DNA of 64,000 nucleotides. It comes from Rhynchopus sp. YZ270_cl-10 (lineage: Eukaryota; Euglenozoa; Diplonemea; Diplonemida; Diplonemidae). The notes below the pieces were generated by a model. It saw nothing but the letters and a program-made list of their open reading frames with translations, was not told the origin of the DNA and ran no database searches. Where the stretch lies: assembly GCA_964035575.1 (NCBI GenBank), contig OZ037841.1:372001-436000 (forward strand), read 5' to 3'. Positions 1 through 64,000 of this stretch are shown here, one piece after another. How positions within the stretch are numbered: the stretch's first letter is position 1; each line of letters begins with the position of its first letter. Made by a program: the position numbers and the translations under genes.

Positions 1-161
1 ATTCACGTGGGCACAGTATTTCTTTTTGTTTTTGGCTTAGACAATCTCCAAGAAGGCATTGCTATTTTTTTTTTTTTTTGTACTTTTTTTAAAAACCCAT
101 ACAATCGTAGAGGATTATGAGCAATGTTTTTGCGTTCAAAAAGATTCCTTTTTTTTTCCTC

Positions 162-213
162 TGAAAACTTGGTTGTATTAGTGTAGCCACCCTAGAGTGT
201 GCTCCACTATACT
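162..213 (+). repeat. Dispersed repeat family C, copy 1
   Basis: Core GGTTGTATTAGTGTAG followed by CCACCCTAGAGTGTG and CTCCACTATA. TAGTG near the start can pair with CACTA at the end, and CCAC can pair with GTGTG inside, giving a two-part hairpin. The same about 50-bp unit recurs near 1417, 38660, 39033, 39328, 41565, 42754, 50588, 53291, 56475 and 59878, with partial copies near 2491, 16350 and 33545. All of these have the same orientation. Confidence 0.85.
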
Positions 214-250
214 TTTTGTTTGATAAACCTAAACCTTCCCGTGTTGTAAG

Positions 251-325
251 TCACCTTGAAAAGGAAAGTGGAGATTGCACAACTGTGGCAACACAACCGA
301 GGCAACTACACTACTCCAATTTATC
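251..325 (-). repeat. Dispersed repeat family C-prime, inverted copy
   Basis: This is the reverse complement of the copy at about 53621-53690: it contains GTGGAGATTGCACAACTGTG followed by CAACACAACCGAGGCAAC. It is the only clearly inverted copy of the C/C-prime group that I found in the window. Other plus-oriented C-prime copies are at about 2764-2820, 41240-41295 and 45296-45340. Confidence 0.75.
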
Positions 326-950
326 GGGAGGAAAAAAAATATTTTCGACACAGAGATATTTCCCATTATGCACCAGGTACAGCCCAGTACGATAAAAAAT
401 GGGTGTTGCTACAGTATTGAAGGCGCTGTGGGTTTTCTGAGTTAATTTGAGAGGGTTTGGGAGAATTTTTCCCCCTTTTTTTGCTTCGAAAGCGACTGAA
501 ATCGGAGCAAAAAAAAAGAAGAAAATCCTTTTAAAGAAGGGATATATGCCTCACACGATGCACAAACATACACAACACACTCTGGGCAGTGTTCTTCCAC
601 TCTAGGGACCTACCTGCAACCTGCTCTCAAACGCATATTTTCACCCATCTAAAATCGCTCCCGCTGCAAAAGGACTAACCCAGGGGAGTAAAAAAATCGG
701 CAAGGTCTTGCCGCCATACTTCAACAGAATTCACATGATGAGACACGTATGGGATACACAATCTTTCAGGGGTTGTTGAGGAGTGAGAAAAGGGAGGGGA
801 AGCACGGTGAAGGGGTGGGTAAACCTTTGTTCGGATGAATATGCAGACATCTAAACCACTATCGTTAATTACTGTTATTTTGTGTACTTCCCTATCAGAG
901 AAAAAAGGGGTTTTGAAAGATAAATCCTCAAGTACACATCTAAAAGAAAA

Positions 951-1110
951 GTTTATAAGATGACCCTAAAGCCTCTTGTTGCTTAGTCACCTAAAAAGAA
1001 GTTGACTTGAAATACAACAGCCCGCTTGTGACAGTGTACGTTGGTATGAGCTGTGTACCGGGGGTGGACCTCAACCATGCAGTCCTACATCCTATTGTGG
1101 TTTACTAAAA
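951..1110 (+). repeat. Composite dispersed repeat A-E
   Basis: It starts with the family A hairpin (GTTTATAAGATGA, then CTAAAGC with loop and GCTTAG, then TCACCT) and continues into family E (GACTTGAAATACAA, CTCGTGACAGTGTAC-like core, then CAACCATGCAGTCCTACA and GTGGTTTAC). The same A-then-E order is seen at about 20612-20830 and 31278-31372. E alone or in part is at 3406-3460, 3528-3600, 21553-21597, 38143-38280 and 46394-46440. Confidence 0.75.
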
Positions 1111-1413
1111 AGGCACGATAAAGTGAAAACGTTGCAAACGCCTCGTCAGACATTTGTCTGGGGAGGGTTTTTGAAATAAACACCAAACTGGGTAAAGATC
1201 TGTTATGAAATATCGGCCTCAAGCCTGTGTACTGCAGAAGGTACAGACGTAGGTCGTCCTCCACCCGAGCAGCTTTTAAAATTTCACAAAAAAAATTCAC
1301 TTTTCTTCTTCAGACGTATCCACAAAAAAAAATACAAAAATCGAGCATTTCATTTCTCGGGTTGGATAAAACAAAAGAGGTGGGGGTTGGGGAAAGTATT
1401 GGTTCTCTTCTTC

Positions 1414-1590
1414 TTTGAACACTTGGTTGTATTAGTGTAGACACCCGAGGATGAACTCCACTGTACAATTTTTTTTGGTTTTGTTACACGGGTTGCCTAC
1501 GATTGTCTACAATCATACTAGGATCAACACAAGAGGGTACAATCGCAGTTGATCGTACCACGATCGTAGGTAACCCTGTGTTGTTAAGAG
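1414..1590 (+). repeat. Dispersed repeats C then D
   Basis: A family C unit (GTATTAGTGTAGACACCCGA form) is followed by a family D-like segment with GATTGTCTACAATC and the palindromic stretch around TTGATCGTACCACGATCG. The same C-then-D order occurs at 33545-33670, 41565-41690 and 56475-56635, so C and D may be two modules of one longer element. Confidence 0.6.
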
Positions 1591-1703: not shown

Positions 1704-1790
1704 TTGTTGTATCGACAATCACTGTACACCTACTGGTATAAAGATCTGCACTCAATGTCGGCCATGGAAGCCTTTGTACGACGGGAAAAT
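1704..1790 (+). repeat. Dispersed repeat family D
   Basis: Contains GTTGTATCGACAATCACTGT, then ACACCTACTGGTATAAAGAT and TCAATGTCGG. A close copy lies at about 58540-58595, and diverged copies carrying TCGACAATC are near 33597, 41636, 50070, 55795 and 56540. Confidence 0.7.
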
Positions 1791-3067
1791 TTTTTTCTTT
1801 TTGTTGATGCCATCTCTTTCGAGACAACACCAGAGGAATTCTCGCACTCTGAGAAAGCTAAAAAAATTACTTTTGAACAGTTGTAGTAAAGTTGAAAACT
1901 GCCAACACCCTCCTGTGGAGGTAGGCCACCACAACAACAAAAAACAATAAATACAAAGCCCTCTCGTGACAGTGTAAAGGATGGACCAACAAAATTGAAG
2001 ATGAATGCATCGTCTCGTGCACACATTAGCTGGGTCATTTGAAAAAGGGTTACCCGATAGGGGGGGAGGAGACGTTTGTGAAACGCTGCGAGACACTGCG
2101 ATAGTGTCCAAAAAAAAAAAATCGTCTCCCCTTTTTTTCAGATGACCCAAATAGCTATAAAAAGGGTAATTGAATTATACTATTGCCACATGGCCATGGC
2201 AGTATCTTTTCTTCACAGTGTCCGCAACATAACATAAAAACATACCGAAAAAAAGGGACATAACAAAACTAACAGAAGCGAATCTAAGGATCGAAGAGGG
2301 GAGGAAGATTGGGCAGAGGAAAGGGAGCAAAGGCTCATTTTTGGGGGAAACGTTTTTTTTTTTTTTTAAATTTTTTGTGATGTTGTTTTTGTTGCTATTG
2401 TATCGACAAAAAAAATCACCCCACCAGAAGAGCTGTGTTCTGTCGGGTATGTCACTCAATAAGGGCGAAAAAAAGGATACTTTTTTTTTGATAATTTTGT
2501 TGTATTAGTGTAGCTCCCATATTGATAGTCTTTTTTGTTGATAAATTTGAAACAGCGAAAATGCCTCGTGGATGCAGGGCTATCTACACATATACCTTTT
2601 GGGTTGGAATTCAAAACCGAGCCACGAAAGACATGCACAGGGTGGAACAAAAAAAAGGGGGAAGAAAACACTCCCTCCCCACGGGAGCGCGTTGTGGTGG
2701 GGAGAGTTTTGGAACCCGACCTGCTTCCCCTTGCGGGTTTTTTTGCGGGTGTGGTCACTATTTCTTTGATAAATTGTTGTAATAGTGTAGCCAACCTGTG
2801 TGTACAAAGCTCCACTTTCACCCACATTTTTTTGAAACAAAAATGCCGTGTGTTCTTTGCGAACTCCCGACCCCTTTTTTCGTTTTCGTTTTCGTTACAA
2901 GCCTTTTTTTTCAAAAACATACTATTCGTTAGTGCAGCTGCTCTCTCTCACACTGCCACTCTTACGATCCTATTTCACAGGAACATTGGTCCCCTCTCTG
3001 GTGTCTTTACGACACCGGAGTGGTGTCAATGTTGCCTGGCTTTCTATCGAAAAGAAACATTCAAAAG

Positions 3068-3160: not shown

Positions 3161-4229
3161 AAGAAAAAGAAAAAGAAACCGAGGATCAGGTAGACGTAAA
3201 CACCTTCGTGTTTGCTCGTAAATCTACTTTCACCCACGCGCTCAGATTCATATACAATTCAATTCAAAGAAGACAGGACTCATTAAAGACAAACGTCTGT
3301 CTCACTGTGCACGTATATCCTGAGACAAAGATCAATCCTACAAAAAATGGTATTTTGGCTTTCCCCCCCAAATGTCACAAAAAAAGTGAACAATGTACCT
3401 TGGGGGGGTGAACCCCCCCAACCATGCAGTCCTACAATCCATTTTCGTGGTTTACATCTGGGGGGGAAAAAAGGGTGATGCTGGGATGGGAGGCCTTTGT
3501 TCCTACTGGAATTAATAGAGTGATGATTTTGACATACAAAGCGTACCTGTTTGGTGCGTGACGAGTACACCGGAGTGGACCCAGGGTCAAGGAAAGGTGA
3601 ACAGGGAAAGCGAGAAAACAAAAAAGAAAACAGAGAACGGAAGGGAGACAAAAATTTGCCAGGTGTGCTCCACACAGTTAATTTTTTTTGTCTTTTGTGT
3701 GTGTGTAAAGAAGGCAAATAAAAAAACCCCCTCAAAAATGCTTTCGTGTTTCCACCGAAAGCGGCAAGGTCTGAAGGAATGTCTGCAAAAGAAAAAAAGA
3801 GAAAAAAGAGGGCAGCGGAACTGCAATACACGCTCTATAAGATGAGTAATTTCTATTGAAAAGGCGCAGCGTATGTGAAAGTGTTGATTATGTTGGCAGC
3901 TGTGGTCTGATAATGTATTTTGATAATATCAGCAAGTCCCAAAAAAAAAAATCAAAGAAAAATAAAAAGTGAAGTTGATAGTATACGCCTCTGGGACGCA
4001 GGCATTGACACTCCAAAAGAGTTGATAATATGAACCTGAGTCTCGCGGTTAGTCACCAAAAAAAAAATGTTGGCAAGTCGAATTTAATTCTTTGTAGTCA
4101 AGTGAGGTACACAAGGATATCTCTAAATCCGACCCTTTTTGGCCAAATTCCGAAATACAAATCCAAAAAATTCCCTGTTTTTTTGATACAGTTTTTGGGC
4201 TATTTTTTGACTTTTTTGCGGAAAAAATT

Positions 4230-6875: not shown

Positions 6876-7004
6876 GGGTGGGGGAAAAGGAAGGAAGGAA
6901 GGAAGGGAGGGAGGAGGATGCGGTATTATTTAGTGTTGCTTTGTCCAACTCTGTAGTGTGTGTAGTGTAGGAGGGAGGGGAGGGGAGGGGGTTTAAAAAA
7001 AGTT

Positions 7005-7046
7005 TTTAAGATGATCCTAAGAATATCGCGTCACACGATATCACCT
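7005..7046 (+). repeat. Family A-like hairpin variant
   Basis: AAGATGATCCTAAG is followed by ATATCG, a loop, CGATAT and CACCT. The outer sequence matches family A but the inner arm is different and still self-complementary. Confidence 0.5.
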
Positions 7047-7593: not shown

Positions 7594-7599
7594 AGAAGA

Positions 7600-8180: not shown

Positions 8181-8182
8181 CA

Positions 8183-9527
8183 TCACTTCTTCTTCCGCGC
8201 TATTTTTGTTGGGGATGTTTTCCTTTTTGCGAGCGTTTTAGCCATCCCACTTGGGGCAGGGGGTGCCGAGGGGGTGGGGAAGGCCTCCTCCTCACCCAGC
8301 CTCTCCCCTTCCCCTTTCTCCTCCGCTTCCTTCATTTCAGCGAGCTCAATGGCGCGGGATTTTGCACGTTCACCGAGACGTACTGCGGCGTTGTAGTACA
8401 CATCGGTCACACCAAGACGTTTCAAACGAGACAACGGCAACGCATCGCGAGGTACCCACACCGGAATTGGGTCTACACGGAGTGCCATTCTTTCGAGCAG
8501 TCCGTTCATCACCTCGTCACACTTTCCCCAGATGCGGAGGTCCGCTTCTTTGTCATGTGGAGTAGGCTGCAGATTGATGATAACCGTCTTCTTTGCCATA
8601 AACGGGAAATGGGTGATATGCCCTAAGGACATGCTTGTCCCCATGACGATGCAGAGGTCCGCCTTTTTGCAGTGTTTTTCGCATTTTTCGTAGTCCGCGT
8701 CGTCTAGGTATTCACCAAAGTTGATGTGGGTGTCCTTTGTGCCTACGTTGGTGTCTTGTGTCCCAATTAACCCATTTTTGGCAAATCCGGTGGATTTTGA
8801 GCCAGTTTTGCTGTTCGTTTGGCGTCCTGTGTATGTCTTTGGTGTGCTAGAGTCGCATCTCTCGCAGGTACCGACTTTGTGGTCGTGGACGTGGATGCCT
8901 TTTTGGCGGACGTGGTAGTTGCGTTCGAAGTCGTATCCGCAAGAGGTGCAGCGTTCGATGTAGATGTCGCCGTGCAGGCAGCACAGCTGGTCTACGGAGA
9001 GGCCAGATTTGCGGAAGATGCCGTCGAGGTTTGTGGTGACGACGTGGTGCGCACGACCTACCTGCACCATCTTCGCCATCGCCATGTGGCACAGCGTCGG
9101 CTGGGCATCCGTCGACGGCACCTTCTTCGCAGCCTTCGCAGTCTCATTGCGCTGCTCCTTCAGCAGCTTCGCCAGCTCCACCTCATCGCTACTGCTCCGT
9201 GCACCAGCCTGCAGCTGTTTGATACGCCGCTGTGTCCACGACCCGCTAGGACCACGATAATCAGACACCCCAGCGCTGGTCGAAACTCCCGCTCCGGTGA
9301 AGAATACAGTGTATTTGCTGGACTGTGGTTTTGAAATGGGATCAAACAAAAAAAAAGACTCAAACCCCCAGACGCTTTTGACCACCGTAAAGTAGAAAGC
9401 TGGGGTGGGGAGGGGGTGGGGGACGCTGTACCTGCATTGCCTCTGCGAGAGAGTCGAGCTTCTGCGCAAAAACGTCTTCTGTGTCGTAGTGCTCTTTTAC
9501 ACGCGATGCATCGACGGTAGAGGCCAT
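8183..9527 (-). CDS. Sirtuin (SIR2 family NAD-dependent deacylase), class IV-like
   Basis: Two exons, 9527-9432 and 9322-8183, give 411 residues; the donor is GTACAG and the acceptor ACCACAG, both in phase 0. Sirtuins remove acyl groups from lysine using NAD+, or transfer ADP-ribose. Visible motifs are the NAD-binding GAGVSTSAGVSDYRG (42-56), TTNLDGIFRKSG (128-139), the catalytic His in LHGD (H149), and a zinc ribbon C157-x2-C160 ... C185-x2-C188. The segment from INFGE to MGTSMSLG, including EKHCKKADLCIVMG, resembles SIRT6/SIRT7, which act on chromatin. The usual TQN-x-DxLH reads TTNLDGIF, an unusual change in the NAD pocket. A basic Lys/Arg tail suggests nuclear location. The start at 9527 was chosen because the long single frame begins inside the intron. 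Confidence 0.93.
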
Positions 9528-13226: not shown

Positions 13227-13485
13227 AGAGTGGGTCACATAACATAGTTACTTTCAATTCACGAGAACAAGAGGAGAGGGCAGATAAAGTGCATCATTAA
13301 AGGGGTCCAGCGATTATGTACGTTTTGGAAACGTAAATAATTGGACCCCCTAAAAATGCCGAGGAAAAAAAGAATAAGACAGAAGATACCGATTGCACAG
13401 TGCCCATATCACAACCCACAACCCCCACGGCACACACGGGTTTTTGTAGACTTTCACAGAAAACAAAATATAAAATAAAATAAAA

Positions 13486-13526
13486 GTTTGTGAGATGAAC
13501 CTAAGCATTTCGTGCTTAGCTTTAAA
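13486..13526 (+). repeat. Family A hairpin
   Basis: GTTTGTGAGATGAACCTAAGC, loop ATTTCGT, then GCTTAG. The arms CTAAGC and GCTTAG pair perfectly. Confidence 0.7.
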
Positions 13527-14502: not shown

Positions 14503-14684
14503 TAATCACTCATCATTCGGTCATTCTTTTCAGAAAATTTTAAAGGTAGTGTGGAGCACACCCTGGGAGAGGCATGTTTCTACACTACAAAAAAATTTCA
14601 AAAAAATGAACGCTTCCCCAACTCTGGACACAAGAAAACCTTGAAAAGCTCTTGTGCCCACCTACTCCCATATGCGGATAGCAT

Positions 14685-17557
14685 CTAGCTAATGTAGAGT
14701 ACTTCTTCAGCACCGAGCCCCTCTGTAAGCGAGGTGTACCTGGCAGCAACACCTTCAAGGCCTTCGCCATCGTAGCTCACGAGGGGCGAAATCTCGACCC
14801 TGCGTGTGCCAGCGTCGACACCGACAGCGGCAAGCCACTTCTTGTGCAGAGCGTAGAGATCAGCCAGCGCTGTCTTCGCGGTGTCCTGTGTGTGTTGTTT
14901 TTCAACGTCGGCTACCTTTCAGCTTTTAAGGTGTGGTGTTAAAAAGAAACGTTTGTGAGATGAAGATTAGTCACCCTAATTGGTGTAGACACCGAAATAA
15001 ACTGACCCACCCACTGATGCCACGGAGAGACCCAAAAGACATAAAAAAAGGAGCGGTGTGCATACCCTTGGCTTGTCATCAGAGTTCTTTATCGCACTGA
15101 ACTCGGTTGCACGGTCGACCTGGAAATTGGGTATGGTGTGGGAGAGGTCGAGGGAATTTAGAAAACCGGACAAATACTATCGTGCCAACTAGTCCTTAGG
15201 AAAAGATTAGTGAGTGTTTTGTTTTTGGCCTAAAAGAGGTTTCCTCTTCACTGCCAGGTAGTGGGAGCGTATTGCAGTAATAAAAACATCACCACAGAAT
15301 ATTTATTACACACTTTACGCACAAACAAAAAAACTATGGCAATGCGTTACCCCGCTAGAAGCGAGTTGAGGTGCGAAGACACCGATTGGCCGGACGTCCC
15401 GGAATTGATCACCGGATCATCTCACTTCACTTCTTTCCAGGCAATAGACGGTTGTCTTCGCACACTGTCAGGAGGTACTCGAGGATTCGACCACATGCCC
15501 ATGCAAGGGAAAGGTACACGTGGACTGTGTGAAGACGAATACTCAGGGTAGCACCCGCTTCGTCAATGGCGACGTGGGATGCCCGGTCTGTTCTTGGAGG
15601 GCGGCCAAGGCCGTCTTTCCTCCTGCACCCACGGACGCTGAGACTCAGGAGCCAAGTCTCCAAGAACAGCTTGAGACCTTCCCGGTCAGTCATCGACCAC
15701 TCTTAACTCGGTTGATCGAATCGAACGACGCCCTGATCCGGGCCCAACAGGTCCAACAGACCAAGCAAAACACGATCCCTATCTGCGGACTCCCAGTGGG
15801 TTTCGACGCAAGTGCCTAACACATGCATGGCTCGAGCACATCGGCCACCCCTACCGTCTTGAATCGGCCGCAGCTATTTTTTGTAGAAATCTCTTTGGTG
15901 TAAAGTGCTTTGTTGTACAAACATCGTCTCAGTTGGCTTTCTTTCATGTCTCGTTTCTTATCACATTGCAAGGGGGGAAAATCGTTATGATACCTTCAAC
16001 AGCCCAAACTTTTTCGATACAGCGAAGGCGTCGAAGATGAATGCCTCCATCTTCATCCCTTTCACCTTCCCGTCAAGTGTGGGGATGTCCTTCAGTGCAC
16101 GGTGCCACACTGTCGACCTGTAAAAGAAAACATAAATAATAAATAGGTAAAAACCCTCTACCACCCCTACCCCTACCCCTACCCTTACCTCTATGACACC
16201 TATAAAAGTAAAAATAATTTTGTACGAGTATGCAATACGTCTGGAAATGAAAGACGCGCTCGTCGGTTGTCATGAGTTTTACCGTTCTCCCCTTCCTTGT
16301 GCTCCACCTCTCCCCCGTACTTCAGGACGCGGGTTTTTTTTGAAACCTTTTGCATTAGTGTATACACCCTCAGGCGTTCCACTCTTTCCCATTCAAAAAG
16401 AAACGTACATTATATGCAGTTCCGCACCGTAAGAGAACGGAGGCGGTTCACCGCTAAGCCACACAACATCCTTAGACCCCTTGGAAACAATAAGCATACC
16501 GCTGGCTGTACTCCATTGCAGGCCCCTTTAAAAACGCCAGCGAGTAGCAGTGGATGGCGGGGTTCGCAGCGCCGTAGAGCAATGCCCCGGAGGGGCTGGT
16601 TTCGGCACTCCGCGCCTCGCCTATCTCTGAGTACTCAATCACGCCGTACGCGCCGTCTCTGCAGGCAAACACACCTACTGCCTCAGACGCATCCTTCTTC
16701 GCAATGGTCTTCGATGCTGCGTCCACACCACGCTCCGCACAGAAGCCGTAGAACACCGGATCTGCTACACGAACCAACACATTGTCCACCGAAAACACCT
16801 GCATCCACTCCACACCTCTCTCCTCCATAAACGTCAACGCCCCGCCACGGTCCAACCCATTGTAGATCCCACCATTACCATCAGGGGACAGACAGAGCGC
16901 CCCCTTCTCAGCCAGGAGCATTTTCCCAGAGAGGTCGAGACACGGCATGCGGCCCTGTTTGAAGAAGTGTACCTGGTCTCGTTTCAGTTCAAAGAAACTG
17001 CGGGATTCAAAAAACTGTTGTGTCACGTCGTGCGTCGCGTCGGATGTCATTACCAGAAAAGGAATGGATGGGGTGGACTCAGGGTGGGCCTCCTTCGCCA
17101 AAGCCTCCAACCGCTTAATACGGAGTGCCTGCAGGGCGAATAGAGAGTATTTTCCTAACAACCCAATATCTGCGCCAGATTCTTCTCCATCTCCGAGAAT
17201 TCCTTTGGGAAAGCTGTGGCCAAGGCGGGTTCCTTGTCCTCCAGCCATGACGGTGGCCGCGCATTTTCCCTGAGAGATAAGCTTTAAGCCAAGAGCATGC
17301 CATCTGGCCTTGTCTGCAGGGTCCGTTGCGTCGCCCATATCCGCTTCTGCGGGGGGTGTGATGGTGGGGGAGTGGTTGCTGGCCTGGGCAGCCTCGGCCA
17401 CTTCCACCAGTGTTGCGATCTTCGCCAGCCCAATGCGGGCTTCCACTTCAGCAATCTCCGCATCCAGCCCGGCACGCTGCTCCGCACTCAAATCAACATA
17501 ATGTTCTAAAACCTGCTCCTGACCGACAGCCTTCAAAGCCTCCAAATGAGAGGACAT
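14685..17557 (-). CDS. UAP1: UDP-N-acetylhexosamine pyrophosphorylase
   Basis: Four exons, 17557-16500, 16117-15994, 15119-15066 and 14885-14685, joined in phases 2, 0 and 0, give 478 residues, close to the family length. The enzyme makes UDP-GlcNAc or UDP-GalNAc from UTP and the sugar-1-phosphate in the cytosol. Visible motifs: the uridyl-binding loop MAGGQGTRLG (104-113) and FPKG; PFLVMTSDATHD; FFKQGRMPCLD; SPDGNGGIYNGLD; and VDNVLVRVADPVFYGF. Exon 2 gives KGMKMEAFIFDAFAVSKKFG, exon 3 the EFSAIKN block, and exon 4 VEISPLVSYDGEGLE, all expected in this order. Donors are GTATGC, GTATCA and GTATGC. A TCCTCCAG tract lies just upstream of the ATG. Intron 1 carries a family C repeat and a C-rich telomere-like tract; intron 2 (874 nt) carries an antisense coding-like segment. 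Confidence 0.95.
14950..15010 (+). repeat. Family A/C-related hairpin in UAP intron 3
   Basis: Contains GTTTGTGAGATGAAGATTAG, TCACCCTAAT and then GTGTAGACACCGA. It looks like a fusion of shortened A and C modules, lying in the last intron of the pyrophosphorylase gene, antisense to it. Confidence 0.5.
15261..15819 (+). CDS. Antisense coding-like segment within UAP intron 2
   Basis: A GC-rich island inside an AT-rich intron, read on the plus strand. One frame (about 15334-15513) reads MAMRYPARSELRCEDTDWPD and onward; an overlapping frame (about 15520-15819) reads GCPVCSWRAAKAVFPPAP, then LQEQLETFPVSHRPLLTRLI. CPVC and the other Cys might bind metal. The two frames differ by one position and no GTATG donor joins them, so it is either a broken gene, a nested gene with a non-standard junction, or captured DNA. 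No family is recognised. Confidence 0.35.
16158..16190 (+). repeat. C-rich telomere-like tract in UAP intron 1
   Basis: Tandem CCCCTA units followed by CCCTTA. On the transcribed (minus) sense this reads as runs of GGGG separated by TA, able to form a G-quadruplex in the pre-mRNA about 40 nt upstream of the exon 2 acceptor. Confidence 0.6.
16350..16392 (+). repeat. Family C partial copy in UAP intron 1
   Basis: GCATTAGTGTATACACCCTC followed by GTTCCACT. It is a diverged copy of family C in the same plus orientation, hence antisense to the host gene. Confidence 0.55.
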
Positions 17558-31270: not shown

Positions 31271-31277
31271 AAGAAAG

Positions 31278-47451: not shown

Positions 47452-47525
47452 AAGTGAAGTTGATAGTGCAAAAACGCCTCTGGGACGCAGGCAATTGACA
47501 CTCCGCGGGGGGGTATCGAACCCCC
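47452..47525 (+). repeat. Family B repeat, best copy
   Basis: GTGAAGTTGATAGTGCAAAA, ACGCCTCTGGGACGCAGGCA, ATTGACACTCCGCG, then GGGGGTATCGAACCCCC. The last part on the minus strand is GGGGGTTCGATACCCCC, a perfect 5-bp T-arm with a 7-base loop. AGTG/CACT and GCCT/AGGC also pair. Confidence 0.75.
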
Positions 47526-48949: not shown

Positions 48950-48953
48950 TAAT

Positions 48954-49153: not shown

Positions 49154-49192
49154 TCGCGAGATGAACCTAGCCCCCGCTGTGCTTAGTCACCT
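49154..49192 (+). repeat. Family A hairpin
   Basis: GCGAGATGAACCTAGCCCCC, GCTGTGCTTAGTCACCT. Confidence 0.6.
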
Positions 49193-50587
49193 AAAATAAG
49201 GGAATCAAAATGAAGAAAAAAACGAAGCTTTGAAGTGCTGTGGATTTACATTCAGGACTTGAACTGGAGGGGCTGAAAAGGGCAGAGGGGGTGGTTTAGG
49301 TCTGTGTGATCATATCGAACAGTTCATAGCGGGTGTCGGTGATTTCCCACTGAAACGTCGAAAGTGTGTGGCAGTGATTCCAGACATACACAGTCACCTC
49401 TCACCCTCCCCTCCCCCACGAACTTCCCCTTTTTCAGCTTGCGGCACAAGCCTTCTTGTTTATGCGAAAAAAGCACATCTACCTACCCAAAAGAGCATGG
49501 TGGTAGTTTGAAGAATTACGGGAAAAAAATTAACAGTTTTCTCTCCCAAGAATACGAGCTTTTTCGCGCGAATATTTGTGAAAAAAAATAACAAAAAAAT
49601 GAAAAAAAAAAATGTCACGCACTCAAAAAATAAAAATAAAAATGGAGTAAAAGGAAGAAACTGGAATAGAGGGATGTTCGACGGATTTTTCCTCGGTCGG
49701 TTTCTTAATAGCAGAAAAGGGGGGAAGAAAGAAAGAGGTAGTGGACCCTAAACCTGTAATTTCTTATCCAACCTGTAACTGTCTTTACCGATGATCGTGC
49801 AACAAAATAATGTAGCCTCGTCACAATAAACGGACCCAACAGGATGCCGGTATAATGTAAAAAATATTTTGAAAGTGCAAAAAAAACGCCTCAGTATTCA
49901 TCGATGGACGCAGGCACTTATAACTAAAGAAAAAAATTCGCAAAACAAAAACAAAAGAGAATACCTGGAAGATAAATACTGCCTCAATGAGAGAGACACA
50001 TCCAGAAAAGGGGGGGTGGTTCAAAGAAAGTGCTGGTTTGTTGCCCCAAAAAAAGAAAAACTTTCTTGTGTAGTATCGACAATCATTTTACCCGAGCTGG
50101 GTTGAAATGTCACCCGAAGGGGGTCAAGATACAGAACACGTTGAAAAAAAAAAAATAATAATGGTGCATGAACCTTAACGTTGAGTACCAACCCAAAAAG
50201 GATAGCGGGACCTCTTCACACAACAAACATTTTTTTTTCCTCCCGCACAGTATATTTTTCCCCATACATAAGGGGACTGAGCAGAAAGAAGAAGAAGAAG
50301 AAAAAAATAACTGCTGTTGTTCAGAATAGAGAAAACGCAAAAAAAAATAAAATGTAAAATGTGCAAAACATCTCACCTATTGGTCGGCGGACACAGGGCA
50401 CACAAAAAGGAAGGGGACTGTTTATTGATGAAAAAAAAACACGAAAACAAAGGAATGCCGCTGTCGAAGACTCAAAAGAAAAAATAAAAACTTGAAGTTT
50501 TTGAAAGCGCATTGAACGCATTTCATGTGCAGAGCACGAGGTTCTTCACGATTTCCCCTCCAGTGAAGTAATTTTCTTTTTTTTTGG

Positions 50588-50633
50588 AAACTTGGTTGTA
50601 TTAGTGTAGCCACCCTAGAGTGTGCTTCACCAT
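50588..50633 (+). repeat. Family C repeat
   Basis: GAAACTTGGTTGTATTAGTG, TAGCCACCCTAGAGTGTGC, TTCACCATTG. Confidence 0.75.
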
Positions 50634-52081
50634 TGGAGTAAAAAAAAAAAAAAAATACTTCCTCAACCCGCCGGCACTGATATTTCGTGAGGTCTTTTGA
50701 ATGGGTTTTGATTTCGAAGTTTTTTGTTATTTTTTTTGGGTTATTTCTGCGGTGCTTTCCCTTAGTGTGGATCGCGTGAATTTCTTTGAAAAACGTAAGA
50801 CCTTTAAAAAAAAAAATGATGAGGCAAAAAGAAATACACGCAGGCACAAAATCCATCTGGTGTGGTTTTGTTTACTATTTTGTTGGTGTTGTTGTTGTTG
50901 TTGATTTTGTTTTTGGCAGGATATGGTTATTTTGCTTTGTTTTATTGAGGGGATGGGATACACAAAACAAAAACAAAAAGAGAGAGAAAAAGAAATAATC
51001 ACACCATTCACCGGGGGGGCGGGGAGTTCTCTGTTCACAGCTGTTCTTCGGGTTCAAAAGAAGAAAAAAAAGGGGGACGAATTTTGCAAAAGAGTGTGCA
51101 ATACCCGTCCCCTTTTATGAGTAACTTTTTTTGTTTTTTTTGTTTGACCATCTGTTGTTTTTAAGCACCCAATGAGGATGCATTTTTTTTTGGGGAGTAC
51201 GGGGGGCAAGCCAATCACAGAAGCCGAGAAAAGGACAGGACACACCTAGGAAGGGGGTTTTTCTTTGGGCAAAATAAAAGATAAACAAAAAACCAAATTG
51301 CAAAACATAAAAAAAAGCGGGGGGCGAGAATCAGTGGGACACAACAGAGACGGAGAGAATCGGAAAAATAGAGACAGGGCTGAAACCACGTTTTCTCCTC
51401 TCTTCTCTCTCTTCCTCCCTCTAATTCCCCCCTTTTTCACTCCAAGGTTCAAGGCTCTCCTAAAATACCTATGGAATGAATGCCCATAAAAAAATCCTTC
51501 CTTTTTATAGCGTGCTTGCGGGGACTCGAGACTTCTGAACGGCAGTTCAAGGACAAGAGATGGTGGGAGGGAAAAAAAACGGGTGGGGAAAAGAGAAAAA
51601 AAAAAAAAAAAACTTAAATGGGAAGAGAATACCGCAGGTACAAGACAAACGAGTGTCTCCGAGTGCAAAAAAAGAGGGGCTGGAAGATGAATCGCCACAA
51701 TGGCTTAAAGTAAAGGGAACACAAAAAAAAAATGGGGTGTGCGTTTTTTTGGGGGGAGAAAACACACTTTGAAAAGTCACTAACACACTGTGTGATTTTA
51801 TTTATCGCTTTGGGGGTTAAAGATGAGATGTGAAGTTGAAGGCACACACATCCTTTTGCCCCAAGGGCTGTCGCTAAACAAAAGGGTTGGGGGGGTGGGT
51901 GATGAATGTGGTGGTGTACCTAAGCAATGCCGTTCAAAGATGAGACTATCCGTTTCTTCGTTCACCAGGATTTCTTCTTTATTAATCATCGGGGTAAATA
52001 AACCCTTTTGGTACACACACACACGACCCAAATTGGGCACAAAGAACAAGTTGTTGGGAAGAGAGAAAGAGAAAAAAATAT

Positions 52082-53241: not shown

Positions 53242-53290
53242 ATAGCAGAAATTGCAGCCATTCTGCGCAATTATCCACCGTTCTATGTTG

Positions 53291-53334
53291 AAGTATTAGT
53301 GTAGACTAGACACCCGAGGATGCGCTCCACTGTA
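53291..53334 (+). repeat. Family C repeat
   Basis: GTATTAGTGTAGACTAGACA, CCCGAGGATGCGCTCCACTG. It has a small internal duplication of TAGAC. Confidence 0.7.
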
Positions 53335-53616
53335 GCATTTTTTTTTTTATGTGGTTTGATCGAAAAAAAATCAGCTTTTTTATCTTTGCTTTTGCTTTTT
53401 ATACAATAATATCTTCTACGAAGTCAACGAGTCTTCACATGACACATATCCATTTGACAACATTTTTTTTGCTGCCTTTACGAAAAACCATCAAATAAAA
53501 AGAAATAAAACCAAAAATTGCACAAACAAAACACCGCTTATCAGAAATACTCTCTGGGGCGCTTGGCAACACCAATCCCCAGTATATCTCTCTTTCTCTC
53601 TTTACAAAAAAAAATT

Positions 53617-56239: not shown

Positions 56240-58620
56240 CATTTTTTTTGGTTTTTTTGGTTTTTTCTTGAACTTCAACGAAGGGGGGGAGACGTGAAAA
56301 AAGAGGGGGAAAAGGGACAAAATATTAATAAAAAAAGACACCTTTTCCCAGAGAATGGAAGGAATTGTTGCCGAGGTTGGGATTGGAAGAGATTGGAGAG
56401 GGGTGGAGTAGGGGAGGAGATCAAGATTCATTGTGCTCAGACGAAGTTTGGGTTGGAATTGCTTGTTTTTTTTTGAAAACTTGGTTGTATTAGTGTAGCC
56501 ACCCTAGAGTGTGCTCCACTATATTTTTTTTTTTGTAGTTTCGACAATCACCTGTCCGAGGAAGGGTTCAGTAGATAAGGTGGCCCGAAGGCAAATGAAT
56601 TTCAAAGGTATATGATGCAGTTCATCCCCAACCAATGAATATTTTTTTTTACAATTTGCCTCTGTTTTTGCGTAATGTTGTTCTTACACGACGTTGGCAT
56701 CAGTGTCACGTTGTGTGGTCTTTTTTTTTTTTTTTTGCTTTGCTCTTTTTGTTATTGCTACGTGATCCAAGACGTCTTGGAAGATAGATGAATTCATCAT
56801 CACAAGCACACACGACACCGTATCCACAAAAAAATCGATATCGTGTCTAGGCAAAACCGCATATGAGATTTGAGGTAATCGTCCTTGCATATTTTTTAAA
56901 AAAAAATTGGTAAGCTACCGAGGTCCAGGCCTCACCTTAATAACAAAGGATGTAAAAGAGTAGGCAATCCTTTTGTTTCGTCACATTTTTTTAAAAAAAA
57001 ATAAAATTGAAAGAATGAACGTGTGCATCACTGTCATGAAAATGAGAAGGGAACAAAAAGAAGAAAAAAAAGCGAGGTTGATAGTGCAAAACGCCGCAAA
57101 AGGCTTCGACTGTGGCAAAATCACAAAAGGAGGGTAGGGGGGCTCCTAGAACCCCCCTTTCCTCCTCTCAAAAAACAAAAAAAAAAAAAAAAAAAAACAG
57201 ACGACAAAGGTACATTTTTCTCCTATGTTCCTGAAGCCTTTTTTTTTTTTGTCAGGGCCAGTTTATTTTTTTTTGGACCTGGGGCCAGTAACACCTGCGA
57301 TACGCATATTTTTCAGAAAAAAATAGACGGTAGCAGAGAGAATAATGAAGGGAAAGGATCCGTGAAGGATGATAAAAAGAAATACAAAATACGAAATACT
57401 GTAAAAAAAAAAAATAAAACTTAAAGTACGAAAGGTACGAGCCTATGACATAGCAAATATGGGGGAGGAACTGGGCTTAAGATATGCCATGAAAACTGCA
57501 AGGGAGTCTGTGTTGTGAAAAACCGACACATAAAAGAAAAAAGGCTTGGGGTAATGCTTCGTCAATATTGCTAAAAAAAAGACGCAGTTCAAAAATTTTT
57601 TTTTAAAGAACACCTTCAAAAAGATGAAAACTCTGGCGCGCATACATTTGCAACACTATCGGTACCGTGCCGTAACACGCTAGGTCTTTTGAAACGCAAA
57701 TCAGAGAAAAAAAGAAATAGTTGAAACGTGCCAAAAAACGCAGCTCGGTCAAAACCATTTAAATCAACACAATAATGCAAGGGGAAGGGAACAGACAAAA
57801 AAAAAATAGTTCGAAAGCACAAAAGCTTCCCCAATGAGTCAACGTCTACGGCATATCATGTGGCCTGTCTGACAAAAAAAAAGAAGGGTTTTGAATGAAG
57901 TTCCAAGAGGGGGGGAAATTTTTTTTGTATTGCACAGTCCTGCTACCACTGTAACACACTCTGACAAAACTTCCTGAAAAAAAATTCTTAGTATGAAGAA
58001 AAATGCTTAGATGCTCTCAAGAGAAGGAGTAACACGATATTCTGTTTCTTCCCTAGAAATCTTAGTGGTATAGTGTGGACACCCCGAAGAATGTGGTACA
58101 CACTGCCATTTATACACAATGTGTTGCGTTCTCCCTTTGACAACTAAGGGGGCACTCTGTAGTGTGTTTGTAGTAATGGACAATACACAATCACAGCGTG
58201 TCTCAGCAGGTCTTGGACTTTAAAAAAAAACGGTACTTTTGGAAAAAAAAAAGTTATTTTTAAAGATGAACCTACGCCTCACTGTCTCATCTAAATAAAC
58301 TTTTGAAGAACAAAAAATTAAAGAAGTAAAAAGTAGCTTTCACCAATCAGCATCCCCGCAAAAAGACTATTAGGTCGAAGAGGTGGGATGCTTTAGTGAA
58401 AAGAAAAAAAGAAAAAAGAAGACAAAAATGAGATAGAAAACGCATCCATCTGACAATTTTTCTTTTGAGAAAAAAAAGGAATGAAGTTGAAGGGTGCAGG
58501 CCCTACACGGGGTCTGGCTTGTCTTTTTTTTGTTGTTGTATCGACAATCACTTTACACCTATTAGTATAAAGATCTGTACTCAATGTTGGTAGGTATTTT
58601 TTTTTTTTGTTTTTTTTTTG
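56240..58620. other. Gene-free repeat stretch
   Basis: C then D at 56475-56635, B at 57073 and 58476, A at 58259-58293, D at 58540-58595. No gene is supported; the frames here are read from A/T runs. Confidence 0.55.
56475..56635 (+). repeat. Dispersed repeats C then D
   Basis: A canonical C unit is followed by GTAGTTTCGACAATCACCTG, AAGGTGGCCCGAAGGC and TATGATGCAGTTCATCCCC. The last part parallels 55895-55910 and 1240-1262 (GTAGTTCGTCC, GTAGGTCGTCC). Confidence 0.65.
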
Positions 58621-59132: not shown

Positions 59133-59877
59133 TTTGTTGTCTGACAAAATCATCCCGCCAAAGAGATGGGTTCAGTTCTGAACACCATCTGTTTGAAAGG
59201 TTTATAATACATACGACTTGAACGACACAAACTCCCATCGCGTTATATTTCCCTTAAATTTTTCCAATTCGAATAAAGAAAGAAAAAAAAAAAAGCTCCA
59301 CTTTTCCCCTCCGGGTTTTTCTTTTTCTAGAAAATTTTTTTTTGGAAAAAGTGGAGTCTTCTGCGTATTGCCTCTATTAGTTTCTCCTTACGGGGGGCTG
59401 TTTCCTGTCTTTGAGGAAAAAAAGGAAATATCCAAAAAGATTCATAATTATCGCTGTACATGGAAGAAAAAAAAAGAAGAAAAAAAAACGACATATTTTC
59501 GGTGAAAATAAAACAAAATAATGCAGATGAAGATTGATGAACAAGGGAGGGGGTAAAGCCACACTAACAAACAAACAGAAATCGATGTACTTTCCACAAA
59601 GGAAAACAAATATGATCATTCTGCTGTTCTCATTGCACACATTTTTTTTTTTGAACGGTCAACCGTACACAGTGATTCATACAGCTGGCAGGCCGTTAAA
59701 AAAAAGAAGAAACATAAAAAAAGACAGAAAGGGCGACTGCTCGATATACAAGGTGCAAAAAAATGGACCAATGAATATGAAAAAAAAATTCCGTAATTTT
59801 CAAAAAAAAAATACGAAGCTTCACGATGCATTCTCAAAACACTCATACCGAGACAGCCGACGTTTTTTTTTTCCTTC

Positions 59878-59929
59878 TGAAAACTATTAGTATTAGTGTA
59901 GACACCCCGAGGATGAACTCCACTATACA
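59878..59929 (+). repeat. Family C repeat
   Basis: GTATTAGTGTAGACACCCCG, AGGATGAACTCCACTATAC. Confidence 0.75.
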
Positions 59930-60726: not shown

Positions 60727-60857
60727 TACCACCTGATTTTTACCCCGCGTATAGGCGCGTGAAGGCGTGTATAGGACCGTATAGGTCCGTACAGGCATAT
60801 ACGGACCGTCCGTACACACCTTTACGCGCCTATACGCGGGGTAGAAATCAGGTGGTA
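60727..60857. mobile_element. Palindromic MITE, CCACCTGATTTTTACCCCGC family, copy 2
   Basis: Same ends as 53120-53241 and the same TAATA flanks. The interior is built from CGTATAGG and CGTACAGG units in both orientations and differs from copy 1 except at the arms. Confidence 0.8.
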
Positions 60858-61117
60858 ATAAGAGTGATCACGAAAAAAATGAAATGCTTCTGACATGGTA
60901 CACAGTTTTGTTTTGTTCATTCAATTCTCCATATATCACCACCCCCTGTTGTTTTATCGTCCCATTCTTCTTTGCACAAATACACTACAAAACGTTAGTC
61001 GGAAAAATGTTGTATTTTCGACTCGTGTGCATCGTACAGCTACAAAGAAGAAGGCGAATAAAAAAGAAAGAAAAATAAAGAAGGAAGATGCGAATACGAC
61101 GATTACAATTCAGAAGG

Positions 61118-61153
<36 letters not shown>

Positions 61154-62116
61154 GTTTCCTTGTACTGTACCTCAGAGAAGAGGGAAAAAAAAGAAAATAT
61201 GGATATCTCTCAAAATGAACCCGAACGTGTCTGGCTTTCAAAATTGAGTGACCTTTTATTTTTTTCTTCAAATCTATTGTATTGCATGGTACCTTCGATT
61301 TTAAATTTCCTTTTTTTTTGAGGGGAGTCTGAATGGATTTTTTTTATGAAGTTTTTTTTGCTATTTTGTGCTCCTTTTTTGACGGGAGGGAGTGGATAAT
61401 AAAAAGGTGAGGGAAAAGTTGATTGTGCAGAAAAAAATGTCCTTTTTTTTTGAAAGATGTATATTAGCATACATACGCATCTCTTTTGAATGATTTATTT
61501 CAACAGATGCATTCAATAAAGTGAACGCATAGGTTTTTAGGGATCAACAAATGTTCCCATATTTTGTAATAAAAGTAAAAAAACGCCTCACCGGACGTAG
61601 ACAATTTACAATTAAAATATAAAGGGGGGTAATGGATATGCTTCTCGTGCACATCTACAAAAAATAAAAATAAAATAAAAAAATCGTGAAAAAATAAAAG
61701 CAGGTTACGGCGTTCAATACCTTGCCCACACCCCACCAAGTTATCATCGGTGAATGAGTTAGGGAGGGGTTGGGAACGTGTTCTGTGTTTGGAAAGAAGA
61801 GGTGGGTTTGTTTTTTTCTTTGCATCCGTATTTTTTTTTGTGTTGCCTGTCGTTGCGCCCTTCCCGTAAAAATAAAAAGGGTGCGTAAATGACAGTCAGA
61901 AGTAAACAAAAAAATGGGGTGCAAGACAATATAAAAGGAAAAAAGTTGATTTAGGTGAACAGCCTTTGGACACAAGAAAAAAAAAAACTTGAACGGTGAC
62001 TTAGGACAGCCAGGGTGGTTGAAAACTGAGTGTTTAACGTTTTTTTTTTTTTTTAATCTGTTTGGTGTAGCTGCCATAGGCAGTCCTCGCTAATTTATTT
62101 TTTTTTTTTTTTTGGG

Positions 62117-63208
62117 ATTTGCCATGGATGTACAAAGTACTTTTTTCCAGAAAGTAAAAAAAAGTAGAAAAATCCCAGTACTTGATACTTCAAGTACTTG
62201 ACCCGTTTTTTTTTTTTTTTTTACTTGATCATGCTGTCCTCTAAATCGGATTTAGGATTCAGGATTTTCTATAAGAAAATTTTATAAGAAAATTTTATTT
62301 TTGCCGGTGAAAAAATTTTCATATGGATATGGGGCAGTGTCTTTTTTAGGGAGGTCGGAATAATTTCCTGGTAGAACAGTGGTTGAACCACGGGAGTACC
62401 CTGGGGAACTGAGTTACTGACCGCACCGTGAAATCCCAGGCTGTCCCCTAATTTTTTTTGCCTGCGGCGCCATTATTTATTACTTTTTTGCTCCGCAAAA
62501 AAGGGTTCGTTGACTGACTCTGTAGTGTAAAAAGCTACATTTTACACCGTACCCTATTATTTTTTCGCCTGCGGCGCCATTTTGTGTTATTCCTTTTGCT
62601 CCGCAAAAGGAAAATAAAATACAGTTCCCTATGTTTCCAATGTCTTCGCTGGTCAGAACTGAAAAACATCTTGGGGGAAACACAAACTGACCCCAAAAAT
62701 CTTGAAATCTGATTCTTGGATAAGGCACTGTACTGTGGTGGGGAGAAAAATGTGACCGACCCGCACTGCGGGCCTACAACAACAAAAAAATATCTTCTCC
62801 TGTTGTGCGCGAAAAATTTTCGCGCGCAGCGCGAAAATTTTTTTTTCTATAAGAAAATTTTGAGATTTAAAAATCAGAAAAATCCTGATTTTTCCCGGAT
62901 TTAAGGACATGCTTGTACTTGATTACTTTTTTTTTTGCATCAAGCACTTGATTCGGCAAAAAAATGGAAAAGTACTTGAAGAAATTCAAGTACTTTTCCA
63001 TTTTTTTTACTTTTTTTGCCAATTCAAGTACTTGATGCAACAAAAAAAGTAATCAAGTACAAAAAAAGTGAAAGTACTTGAAGGAAAAAAAGTACTTGAA
63101 GCAAGAAAAAAATATTTTTTTCTTTTTTTTTTAAATCGATCAAGTACTTGAAGTAGACCAAAAAAAGTAAAAAAAAGTAATCAAGTACTTTGTACATCCA
63201 TGATTTGC
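62117..63208. mobile_element. TIR element with AAGTACTTGA subterminal repeats (1.08 kb)
   Basis: The element spans 62123-63202. Its ends are perfect inverted 20-mers, CATGGATGTACAAAGTACTT and AAGTACTTTGTACATCCATG, with a 6-bp target duplication ATTTGC (62117-62122, 63203-63208). Many CAAGTACTTGA units follow in the arms. The centre holds the GGCGCCGCAGGC module (62381-62610) and no transposase. Confidence 0.85.
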
Positions 63209-64000
63209 GTAGTCCGACAAAAAAAAAATCACCGTTTTTTTGTCAAAAGAAAACAACAATACAATACTGCAATAGCATTTTTTTTGTGCAAAAAGCCTGA
63301 TAAGAGGTCTCTTCGCTTGCTTACAGAACGACACACTAAATGTGTGACAGAAATTGAGAAAAAAAGGGAACCTCTCGGTTGGCCTTAAAAATAATAATAA
63401 TCCTTGGAAAGATGAACGTGCCGTACGAGCGGGGTTTCATCTTTCCGAACAAGGTTCTTTTTCGGTTTCAACACGGGACGATGTTTCTGGCTTTGAGCAG
63501 TCAAAAGACCGGACCATTTCCCGTTTTGTTGGGGGGGTATTTTTTTATTTGTGTCGTAATGCCATTATTGATTCTTCACAAAATCCTGTTGGCGTGCAAT
63601 TTGAAAACCCTTCACCTACCTGTAGGGGGTCTCATCGCGGTTACACATTGCAGGCCTGTAATAGGATTTTTGTGAATTCGTCAATAATTGCGTGAAAACT
63701 ACTAATTACACGGGTAATTAGAAGCTATTTTTTTTGCAATAAAGAGCTACAGAGGGTAATGCAAAATATTTTTTTTCGGGGGGGGGTGGGGATGGGGTTT
63801 GAAAAGGAAGAAAACCTTGATAGAATGAGTGTGTACCACAGTGCACACACATCGTCAAGTAAAATAAAATAAAAGCTCGCAAGATGACGCTAAGCCTCAC
63901 AGTGCTTTCGTCATCTTCCACAACTTAAAACGAAGAACAAATCGAGAAAAAATAAAATAAAATGAATGTGTTTCACATGAGTAAAAATTCATCTAAAAGA
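63209..64000. other. Window end without supported gene
   Basis: Two overlapping plus-strand frames of about 100 residues (63354-63695) are open but have no domain and read differently in each frame, so I do not call a gene. Hairpins of the AGATG..CATCT type are at 63412-63444 and 63818-63856, and a family A copy is at 63876-63918. Confidence 0.45.
63876..63918 (+). repeat. Family A hairpin with the longest stem
   Basis: AAGATGACG (63881-63889) pairs perfectly with CGTCATCTT (63909-63917), and AAGC pairs with GCTT around the loop CTCACAGT. The outer arms differ in sequence from the usual family A ends, yet both sides have changed together. Confidence 0.75.

What the first reader, a model, noticed from the sequence alone, without database searches (positions are those of the whole stretch)
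1..64000. Dispersed structured repeats point one way while all confident genes point the other
I count about twenty family A, twelve family B and thirteen or more family C copies in plus orientation, with one clear inverted C-prime copy (251-325) and at most one doubtful inverted A (near 18235). All eight confident genes are on the minus strand. Ordinary SINEs or MITEs insert in both orientations. A consistent bias suggests selection at the RNA level, for example in a long transcript, or a link to replication direction.
Basis: partly seen in the sequence, partly recalled or inferred. Interest (0 to 1): 0.8.

Follow-up and report, generated by a model that had tools for sequence, protein, structure and literature searches.

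The report
One-way short repeats follow transcription
In this single-celled flagellate (most likely a marine diplonemid), thousands of tiny repeated sequences outside the coding parts of genes face one fixed way relative to the direction in which the neighbouring genes are read, and flip where the genes flip, which suggests that the process that spreads or sorts them can sense direction along the chromosome.

Summary
The host genome is eukaryotic (152 Mb, 126 contigs), most likely a diplonemid. Two-strand model searches of 324 kb put family A on the gene-sense strand in 50 of 50 hits, a third family E in 26 of 26, and C in 37 of 42. Genome-wide the 18-base A core has 3250 forward and 3273 reverse copies. 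Of 249 listed A copies, the 30 within 50 kb of a marker gene all have the core opposite to the gene strand, 14 of them beside plus genes; B gives 12 of 12. An ordinary repeat, H, agrees with the nearest A copy in 24 of 46.

'Opposite to the genes' depends on the strand read: in A, B and E the gene-sense strand folds better. Copies decay with little compensation, avoid coding sequence and do not cluster near it, so per-copy RNA function is unsupported. Best reading: short retroposon-like repeats whose orientation is fixed at or soon after insertion by the direction of polycistronic transcription or co-directional replication. The insertion mechanism is inferred.

The parts
949..994 (-). family A copy (strand = gene-sense strand, as for all repeat parts below)
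   Evidence: R1 hit, E 4e-12
4020..4060 (-). family A copy
   Evidence: R1 hit
7000..7024 (-). family A copy, only the gene-sense 3' half
   Evidence: R1 hit, model positions 21-45
13484..13520 (-). family A copy
   Evidence: R1 hit
20613..20648 (-). family A copy
   Evidence: R1 hit
21839..21882 (-). family A copy inside an intron of the ubiquitin-hydrolase gene, shortly before the 3' splice site
   Evidence: best R1 hit, E 1.8e-14; intron read by eye
31277..31318 (-). family A copy
   Evidence: R1 hit
31452..31491 (-). family A copy
   Evidence: R1 hit
36083..36109 (-). family A copy, partial
   Evidence: R1 hit, E 6e-4
41155..41198 (-). family A copy
   Evidence: R1 hit
47263..47297 (-). 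family A copy
   Evidence: R1 hit
49158..49194 (-). family A copy
   Evidence: R1 hit
58257..58294 (-). family A copy
   Evidence: R1 hit
63874..63917 (-). family A copy
   Evidence: R1 hit
990..1051 (-). family E copy
   Evidence: R3 hit
1936..1983 (-). family E copy
   Evidence: R3 hit
21550..21608 (-). family E copy inside the next intron of the ubiquitin-hydrolase gene
   Evidence: R3 hit
31320..31380 (-). family E copy
   Evidence: R3 hit
38129..38190 (-). family E copy
   Evidence: R3 hit
158..212 (-). family C copy
   Evidence: R2 hit
1412..1466 (-). family C copy
   Evidence: R2 hit
2762..2820 (-). family C copy
   Evidence: R2 hit
16337..16387 (-). family C copy
   Evidence: R2 hit
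33537..33589 (-). family C copy
   Evidence: R2 hit
38657..38711 (-). family C copy
   Evidence: best R2 hit
39029..39083 (-). family C copy
   Evidence: R2 hit
41549..41602 (-). family C copy
   Evidence: R2 hit
42751..42805 (-). family C copy inside an intron of the PH-kinase gene
   Evidence: R2 hit
50581..50635 (-). family C copy
   Evidence: R2 hit
53285..53335 (-). family C copy
   Evidence: R2 hit
56470..56524 (-). family C copy
   Evidence: R2 hit
59873..59928 (-). family C copy
   Evidence: R2 hit
14546..14605 (+). the one inverted family C copy of the window found by the model
   Evidence: R2 hit, E 0.01
44115..44137 (-). family B copy (core)
   Evidence: motif scan
47457..47479 (-). 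family B copy (core)
   Evidence: motif scan
57075..57097 (-). family B copy (core)
   Evidence: motif scan
1706..1720 (-). family D copy (core); further D cores at 33456, 33599, 41637, 50070, 55791, 56535, 58535
   Evidence: motif scan
27213..27242 (-). family J copy, a MITE-like repeat with weaker bias genome-wide
   Evidence: pattern hit G000:C9:399213
8183..9469 (-). gene: SIR2-like
   Evidence: Pfam PF02146, E 2e-24
16472..17557 (-). gene: UDP-sugar pyrophosphorylase
   Evidence: PF01704, E 9e-26
21018..25412 (-). gene: ubiquitin carboxyl-terminal hydrolase; extent joins the 21924-25412 ORF with smaller downstream coding blocks by eye
   Evidence: PF00443, E 1e-40, on 21924-25412; introns read
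36247..37762 (-). gene: protein kinase, several exons; downstream exons read by eye
   Evidence: PF00069, E 2e-54, on 37085-37762; second exon match
41957..43907 (-). gene: PH-domain protein kinase, exons
   Evidence: PF00069 and PF00169 on 42882-43907, PF00069 on 41957-42658

Best explanation
The repeats are short, non-autonomous, retroposon-like copies of small structured RNAs of about 40 to 110 bases (the A/E/B/G group; C, and probably D). Read in the gene-sense direction A, B and E fold into hairpins and lie in U-rich surroundings; C and D lie in A-rich surroundings. They sit in intergenic and intronic DNA and decay there. Their orientation is not chosen copy by copy by function. It is fixed at, or very soon after, insertion by the polarity of the long one-way transcription units, or of replication running the same way. 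Shown here: the families, their copy numbers, the lock to the coding strand, the flip, decay with little compensation, no age trend in family C. Inferred: that the copies are mobile, that the mobile form is RNA, that it is copied in from 3' ends on the strand antisense to the genes (for example lagging-strand fragments, or nicks in the transcription template), and that this primer polarity is the source of the lock.
For: Lock: A 50 of 50, E 26 of 26, C 37 of 42 model hits in gene-sense orientation, both strands searched, 314 kb of C9 and 10 kb of a plus-gene part of C2. Listed A copies 30 of 30 opposite in core-motif strand to a marker gene within 50 kb (14 plus genes, 16 minus; several copies can share a gene; per gene 16 of 16), A v nearest A 102 of 102, B 12 of 12 and 15 of 15; control repeat H agrees with the nearest A in 24 of 46. 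Flip: in C2:625-635 kb all 10 motif hits (A, E, B, C, D, G, K) are on the other strand (the G and K hits are weak). Not maintained per copy: in A 7 of 80 changed stem-pair cells are compensated and pairing is 84.1% v 83.6% in shuffles; no pair of C changed on both sides. No age trend in C: exact copies 57 concordant and 6 discordant; sets that admit diverged copies 21:3 and 41:6. Runs of eight or more A and T are equally common in the noncoding part (342 v 324), so target runs do not explain it. RNA-type anatomy: the gene-sense strand folds better in A (26 of 32, p 1e-5), E (10 of 13), B (10 of 15); random DNA 279 v 284, 308 v 284, 298 v 295. E copies keep the gene-sense 3' end and lack the 5' part in 14 against 1. 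The homopolymer run is longer on the gene-sense 3' side in 5 of 5 families, though by base count only E is significant alone (p 0.016).
Against: No target-site duplications as a rule: matched flanks equal mispaired flanks in A (3.23 v 3.24, n 26, p 0.50) and C (p 0.39, n 15); one C copy near C9:222940 is bounded by a direct repeat of about 16 bases, read by eye. Truncation in A is not clearly one-sided (13 v 9), and E may simply have a short and a long source form. Per copy, D (6 of 12) and G (2 of 5) show no folding preference, and J (0 of 7) and K (0 of 5) fold better on the other strand, so one RNA rule does not cover all families. RNAalifold does propose shared structures for C (11 pairs) and E (10 pairs), and two C pairs vary as C-G/U-G that still pair on the gene strand, which leaves some room for structural constraint there. 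Looser scans gave one opposite-strand B (15:1) and one opposite-strand E half. No empty site was recognised, so mobility is inferred. Three of the five inverted C copies lie 10-20 kb from a transcription switch, which insertion polarity alone does not explain unless that zone is replicated both ways. No expression, replication or small-RNA data.
Confidence: 0.42

Rival explanations
1. Insertion is random but one orientation is removed at once by selection. In transcription units of several hundred kilobases an inverted copy would be transcribed as the complement of thousands of like copies in other pre-mRNAs, make double-stranded RNA and trigger RNAi, or disturb polymerase passage for all downstream genes.
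For: A diplonemid, Diplonema papillatum, is reported to encode homologs of all parts of an RNAi pathway and one-way clusters of up to 120 genes (PMC10161547 section 9). The lock also touches J, whose better-folding strand is the other one (J opposes the nearest gene in 10 of 10 within 50 kb and agrees with the nearest A in 14 of 18). Leishmania SIDERs show a 4-fold sense excess in gene clusters (PMC2689281 passages).
Against: A two-way repeat of about 2000 copies (H: 1002 v 1004 genome-wide) agrees with the nearest A in only 24 of 46 (near marker genes H is opposite in 3 of 3 within 50 kb and 6 of 9 within 100 kb, too few to tell). No age trend in C, where progressive purging should make old copies more one-sided. 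Zero isolated inverted copies in 68 triples of neighbouring A copies would require near-certain loss.
Confidence: 0.3
2. Replication-coupled insertion at DNA level: the repeats are single-strand hairpin elements (REP or IS200 type, or Helitron-like) pasted into the lagging-strand template, so they record fork direction rather than transcription.
For: Bacterial IS200/IS605 and Tn7 insertions follow fork direction (PMC5371812 passages). Marker genes run minus-then-plus on 16 of 16 contigs with both strands, and listed A copies plus-then-minus on 28 of 30, as expected if forks and polymerases leave a central region together. Inverted C copies concentrate near the C9 convergent switch (3 of 4 in L014, 2 of 34 elsewhere in C9), where forks would meet.
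Against: A and E are fully one-sided in that same 10-kb stretch (3 of 3 and 2 of 2). The strand with the folding preference differs between families. No transposase or element ends were sought or identified.
Confidence: 0.15
3. The hairpins are functional RNA signals in the long transcripts (processing, export, stability) kept by selection.
For: Strict gene-sense polarity, better folding on the sense strand in A, B and E, conserved positions; RNAalifold structures for C and E. Some copies sit shortly upstream of 3' splice sites.
Against: Little compensation and covariation no better than shuffles in A and none in C, no RNAalifold consensus for A, placement like random noncoding positions (3.4% v 5.2% within 150 bases before a coding segment, 5.2% v 4.8% after one, n 116), no Rfam family at gathering threshold in the window, no excess of wobble pairs on the sense strand (20 v 21).
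Confidence: 0.1

Closest known systems
Leishmania SIDER retroposons (PMC2689281, passages read)
   Same: Short non-coding retroposons (1853-1986 per genome) dispersed in polycistronic units of a euglenozoan, biased in orientation relative to the gene clusters.
   Different: SIDER bias is about 4:1 sense and reverses between 3'UTR and spacer; here A and E are one way in every model hit. The families here are shorter than SIDERs (SIDER length recalled). I did not search for the 79-base signature of trypanosomatid retroposons.
Bacterial IS200/IS605 and Tn7 elements (PMC5371812, passages read) and REP/REPIN hairpins (PMC3116915, listing and abstract start only)
   Same: Orientation follows a chromosome-wide polarity (IS200/IS605, Tn7); short repeats (REPIN).
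   Different: Those are bacterial and DNA-level. No transposase, target motif or element end was shown here, and the host is a eukaryote.
SINEs and LINEs with template-strand preference (Alu, L1; PMC10030826, passages read)
   Same: Dispersed copies whose orientation is biased relative to transcription and replication.
   Different: Those are described as preferences; here A and E are near absolute across all samples taken.
Repeats of Diplonema papillatum (PMC10161547, passages and section 9 read)
   Same: Molecules of 1.1-1.8 Mb, clusters of up to 120 one-way genes, abundant dispersed repeats, scattered 28S pieces.
   Different: The parts I read report no orientation of dispersed repeats relative to gene strand; its supplements were not open to me.

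Membership tests
SINE / non-autonomous retroposon | many short dispersed non-coding copies that diverge independently | tested here: met
   A core 6523 copies at <= 1 mismatch; mostly uncompensated changes
SINE / non-autonomous retroposon | fixed 3' end with variable 5' truncation | tested here: inconclusive
   E 14 v 1, A 13 v 9, C 10 v 5 or 13 v 5 by subfamily pattern; D hits were largely chance
SINE / non-autonomous retroposon | 3' homopolymer or simple tail | tested here: inconclusive
   Longer run on the gene-sense 3' side in 5 of 5 families, p 0.016 to 0.25 each; runs occur on both sides
SINE / non-autonomous retroposon | target-site duplication | tested here: not met
   Matched flanks no more alike than mispaired flanks in A (n 26) and C (n 15); therefore not filed as a SINE
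SINE / non-autonomous retroposon | RNA polymerase III promoter boxes | not tested
   A tRNA T-arm-like stretch was seen by eye in some B copies; weak similarity to local tRNA loci (E 0.025)
MITE | terminal inverted repeats plus duplicated target | tested here: inconclusive
   J ends pair in the fold; no duplication test for J; A and C show no target duplication
Structured cis-regulatory RNA or ncRNA gene | covariation of stem pairs | tested here: not met
   A. C: (few variable pairs). E not counted
IS200/REP-type single-strand element | cognate Y1/RAYT transposase | not tested
   No search of the genome for this transposase was made
Introner (mobile intron) | each copy creates a spliced intron in coding sequence | tested here: not met
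   0 of 116 copies overlap scored coding segments and there is no enrichment near them; splicing itself was not tested

The most novel reading that the evidence does not exclude
Polarised retroposition in a eukaryote: small RNAs with U or A tails are copied into the genome only from 3' ends on the strand antisense to the genes, such as lagging-strand fragments where fork and polymerase travel together, or are inserted into nascent pre-mRNA and copied back. Repeat orientation would then be a fossil record of fork or transcription direction along every chromosome.
Probability: 0.3. Interest if true: 0.85.

Novelty: new variant of a known kind. Interest (0 to 1): 0.66.

Why it matters
The orientation biases of dispersed repeats that I found described are preferences. 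Here several short families are locked at or near 100% to the direction of gene clusters hundreds of kilobases long, while another repeat in the same DNA is random. That makes the repeats a possible map of directionality and allows a direct test of whether transcription, replication or selection sets insertion polarity in a eukaryote. It also bears on how diplonemids, reported to be among the most species-rich marine microeukaryotes (PMC10161547 abstract), carry repeat-rich polycistronic chromosomes.

Tried and rejected
Sarcin-ricin loop origin of A: the loop ACGAGAGG resembles 28S rRNA, but the genome's own 28S shares only that loop, and none of the ten consensus strings matches the rDNA loci beyond chance. 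GNRA loops as a general rule for hairpins: none (7 v 7). 3'-splice-site or branch-point module: suggested by introns, rejected by random placement. A- or T-run supply as cause: rejected. Rfam matches in the window: none at gathering score; sub-threshold ones, mostly to miRNA families on long inverted repeats, taken as chance. Empty sites through paralogous duplications: none recognised. Scripts that failed: blast setting; time limit. Two SSU rRNA searches did not complete.

Limits: the place lists show only the first 100 of each total. The L037 row of alignment A1 was cut off place and carries an unaligned tail. J and K counts include several segments of one copy. The fold test used spans of my choice and the 116 motif-found copies of one orientation. 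The species is inferred.


Full report
What the window is. It lies at C9:372001-436000 of a 152.4-Mb genome in 126 contigs. The UDP-sugar pyrophosphorylase at 16472-17557(-) has its closest relatives in EukProt transcriptomes (74% identity to the best); one hit at 51% carries the prefix 'Hpha', which I recall as the diplonemid Hemistasia. A neighbouring ORF matches the paraflagellar-rod domain (E 7e-8); its own search returned only itself. Two introns read by eye begin GTATG and end CAG, the motifs reported for several diplonemids (PMC12621601, section 5 read). Diplonema papillatum is reported to have one-way clusters of up to 120 genes, some 3600 scattered 28S pieces and molecules of 1.1-1.8 Mb (PMC10161547, passages and section 9). 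I take the host as a diplonemid, with moderate confidence.

The observation. Models of A, C and E were searched on both strands of the window, 250 kb of C9 around it and 10 kb of C2 (324 kb). A: 48 of 48 on minus in C9 and 2 of 2 on plus in C2 (E up to 5; 47 of the 50 at E below 0.1). E: 23 of 23 and 3 of 3. C: 33 minus and 5 plus in C9, 4 of 4 plus in C2. The models were built from 22, 15 and 10 copies of this DNA, all gene-sense. C9 codes on plus from 172 to 206 kb and on minus from 212 to 486 kb, apart from one plus segment at 465.6-467.3 kb; the 172-206 kb part holds no motif hit on either strand. De novo clustering of short repeats in the noncoding part of C9:212-486 kb gave one-way families (A+E 58:0, J 15:0, B 9:0, K, I and G 8:0 each, B2 6:0, two more at 5:0 and 4:0, and C 41:6) and two-way ones (11:8, 7:11, 6:9, 11:3, 3:7, 4:3, 3:4), besides 6:1, 5:1 and 3:1. 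Pairs of similar noncoding segments of C9:172-486 kb more than 3 kb apart agree in orientation 412 to 120 when under 120 bases long, 63 to 51 at 120-400, and 15 to 1 above that, where local duplications dominate.

Genome-wide. The 18-base A core has 3250 forward and 3273 reverse copies at up to one mismatch, the reversed pattern none. C has 2078 and 2230, B 206 and 219, J 234 and 220, the ordinary repeat H 1002 and 1004. The equal totals hide long one-way domains. From the listed places, A copies within 50 kb of a kinase or AAA gene have the core opposite to the gene strand in 30 of 30 cases (14 plus genes, 16 minus), 48 of 49 within 100 kb; A agrees with the nearest A in 102 of 102 (125 of 126 within 100 kb); B agrees with A in 15 of 15 and opposes genes in 12 of 12 (11 of them plus genes); J agrees with A in 14 of 18 and opposes genes in 10 of 10; H agrees with A in 24 of 46 (35 of 64 within 100 kb) and opposes genes in 3 of 3 (6 of 9 within 100 kb). 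Counted per gene, A is opposite in 16 of 16 within 50 kb, 23 of 24 within 100 kb and 33 of 35 within 200 kb; C in 5 of 6 within 50 kb. Marker genes run minus-then-plus on 16 of 16 contigs that carry both strands, and listed A copies plus-then-minus on 28 of 30, the exceptions being C1 and C2. So many chromosomes look like two long arms transcribed outward, although C9 shows that extra switches exist.

Which way do they point? The complementary, gene-sense strand folds better per copy for A (26 of 32, p 1e-5), E (10 of 13), B (10 of 15), I and B2 (3 of 3 each) and, weakly, C (13 of 21, p 0.09); D (6 of 12) and G (2 of 5) show nothing; J (0 of 7) and K (0 of 5) go the other way; random noncoding DNA is even (279 v 284 at 40 bases). 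By consensus the sense strand folds better in all but J. Read as RNA, the main families point the same way as the genes.

Are the copies maintained? In 96 listed A copies with loop and flanks fixed by the pattern and stem left free, 80 pair cells changed: 7 compensated, 20 G-U on the gene strand, 21 G-T on the other, 32 on neither. On 22 aligned A copies pairing equals shuffles (84.1% v 83.6%; covariation 0.109 v 0.101) and RNAalifold finds no consensus structure. It does propose structures for C and E; C has no pair changed on both sides, but two pairs vary between C-G and U-G. Of 116 copies none overlaps a scored coding segment, and they are no nearer to such segments than random noncoding positions. 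This looks like decaying copies more than constrained signals.

When is orientation set? Exact C copies flanked by like-oriented exact A copies are concordant 57 to 6 (37 more were not so flanked); sets admitting diverged C copies 21 to 3 and 41 to 6. There is no isolated inverted A among 68 triples. A bias that does not grow with age argues for a lock at insertion or immediate removal. Target supply does not explain it: A copies lie in A-rich and C copies in T-rich surroundings on the listed strand, yet runs of eight or more A and T are equally common (342 v 324). E keeps the gene-sense 3' end (14 v 1; A 13 v 9, C 10 v 5), and the homopolymer run is longer on that side in 5 of 5 families, significantly by base count only for E. 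These are retroposon-like traits, but target-site duplications are absent as a rule, so I do not file the repeats as SINEs. Of the five inverted C copies in C9, three lie in L014, 10-20 kb from the convergent switch, where A (3 of 3) and E (2 of 2) remain one-sided. C may therefore follow replication, which would be mixed there, more than transcription.

Mechanism. I prefer insertion primed from 3' ends on the strand antisense to the genes, with polarity given by co-directional replication or by transcription. This is inferred. Immediate selection against inverted copies, for example through double-stranded RNA, is the main rival; its weak point is that a two-way repeat of about 2000 copies (H) coexists with A. 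A bacterial parallel, transposons whose orientation follows fork direction, is reviewed in PMC5371812 (passages). The nearest euglenozoan parallel, SIDERs, has a 4-fold sense excess (PMC2689281, passages).

Novelty. The listings of searches showed no paper on one-way short repeats in diplonemids; the library lacks most subscription journals, and I read only the parts named above. I rate this a new variant of a known kind: dispersed short repeats with an orientation lock stronger than the biases I found described.

Noticed in passing
G000, 16 contigs with marker genes of both strands: Kinase and AAA genes run minus-then-plus along 16 of 16 contigs, as if each chromosome were two long arms transcribed outward from the middle.
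   Followed up: partly
G000 C1, C22, C29, C67, C68 and others: tRNA matches of one and the same score recur at spacings of roughly 20-40 kb; the four loci looked at are dense clusters of tRNA genes on both strands.
   Followed up: no
C9:206000-212500 (L012, L013): Convergent switch of coding strand with 2-kb duplications beside it; three of four C copies in L014 (222-232 kb) are inverted while A and E copies there are not.
   Followed up: partly
G000 C111 and scattered places: Six 28S matches about 6.6 kb apart on C111, and about thirty isolated 28S pieces elsewhere.
   Followed up: no
window 36570-36787: Long inverted repeat in what reads by eye as an intron of the kinase gene; its sub-threshold matches to miRNA families in Rfam look like chance.
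   Followed up: no
C9 near 290-291.3 kb: A 1.4-kb insertion with inverted GGGCAAACAAA-like ends splits one copy of a repeat that is uninterrupted in two others; it looks like a DNA transposon.
   Followed up: no
window 27205-27310, 48845-48950, 52710-52770: Family J: inverted-repeat ends and internal short direct repeats, MITE-like, yet still biased (14 of 18 agree with the nearest A copy).
   Followed up: partly
C9:222940 (L014): One inverted C copy is bounded by a direct repeat of about 16 bases, the only target-duplication-like case noticed by eye.
   Followed up: no
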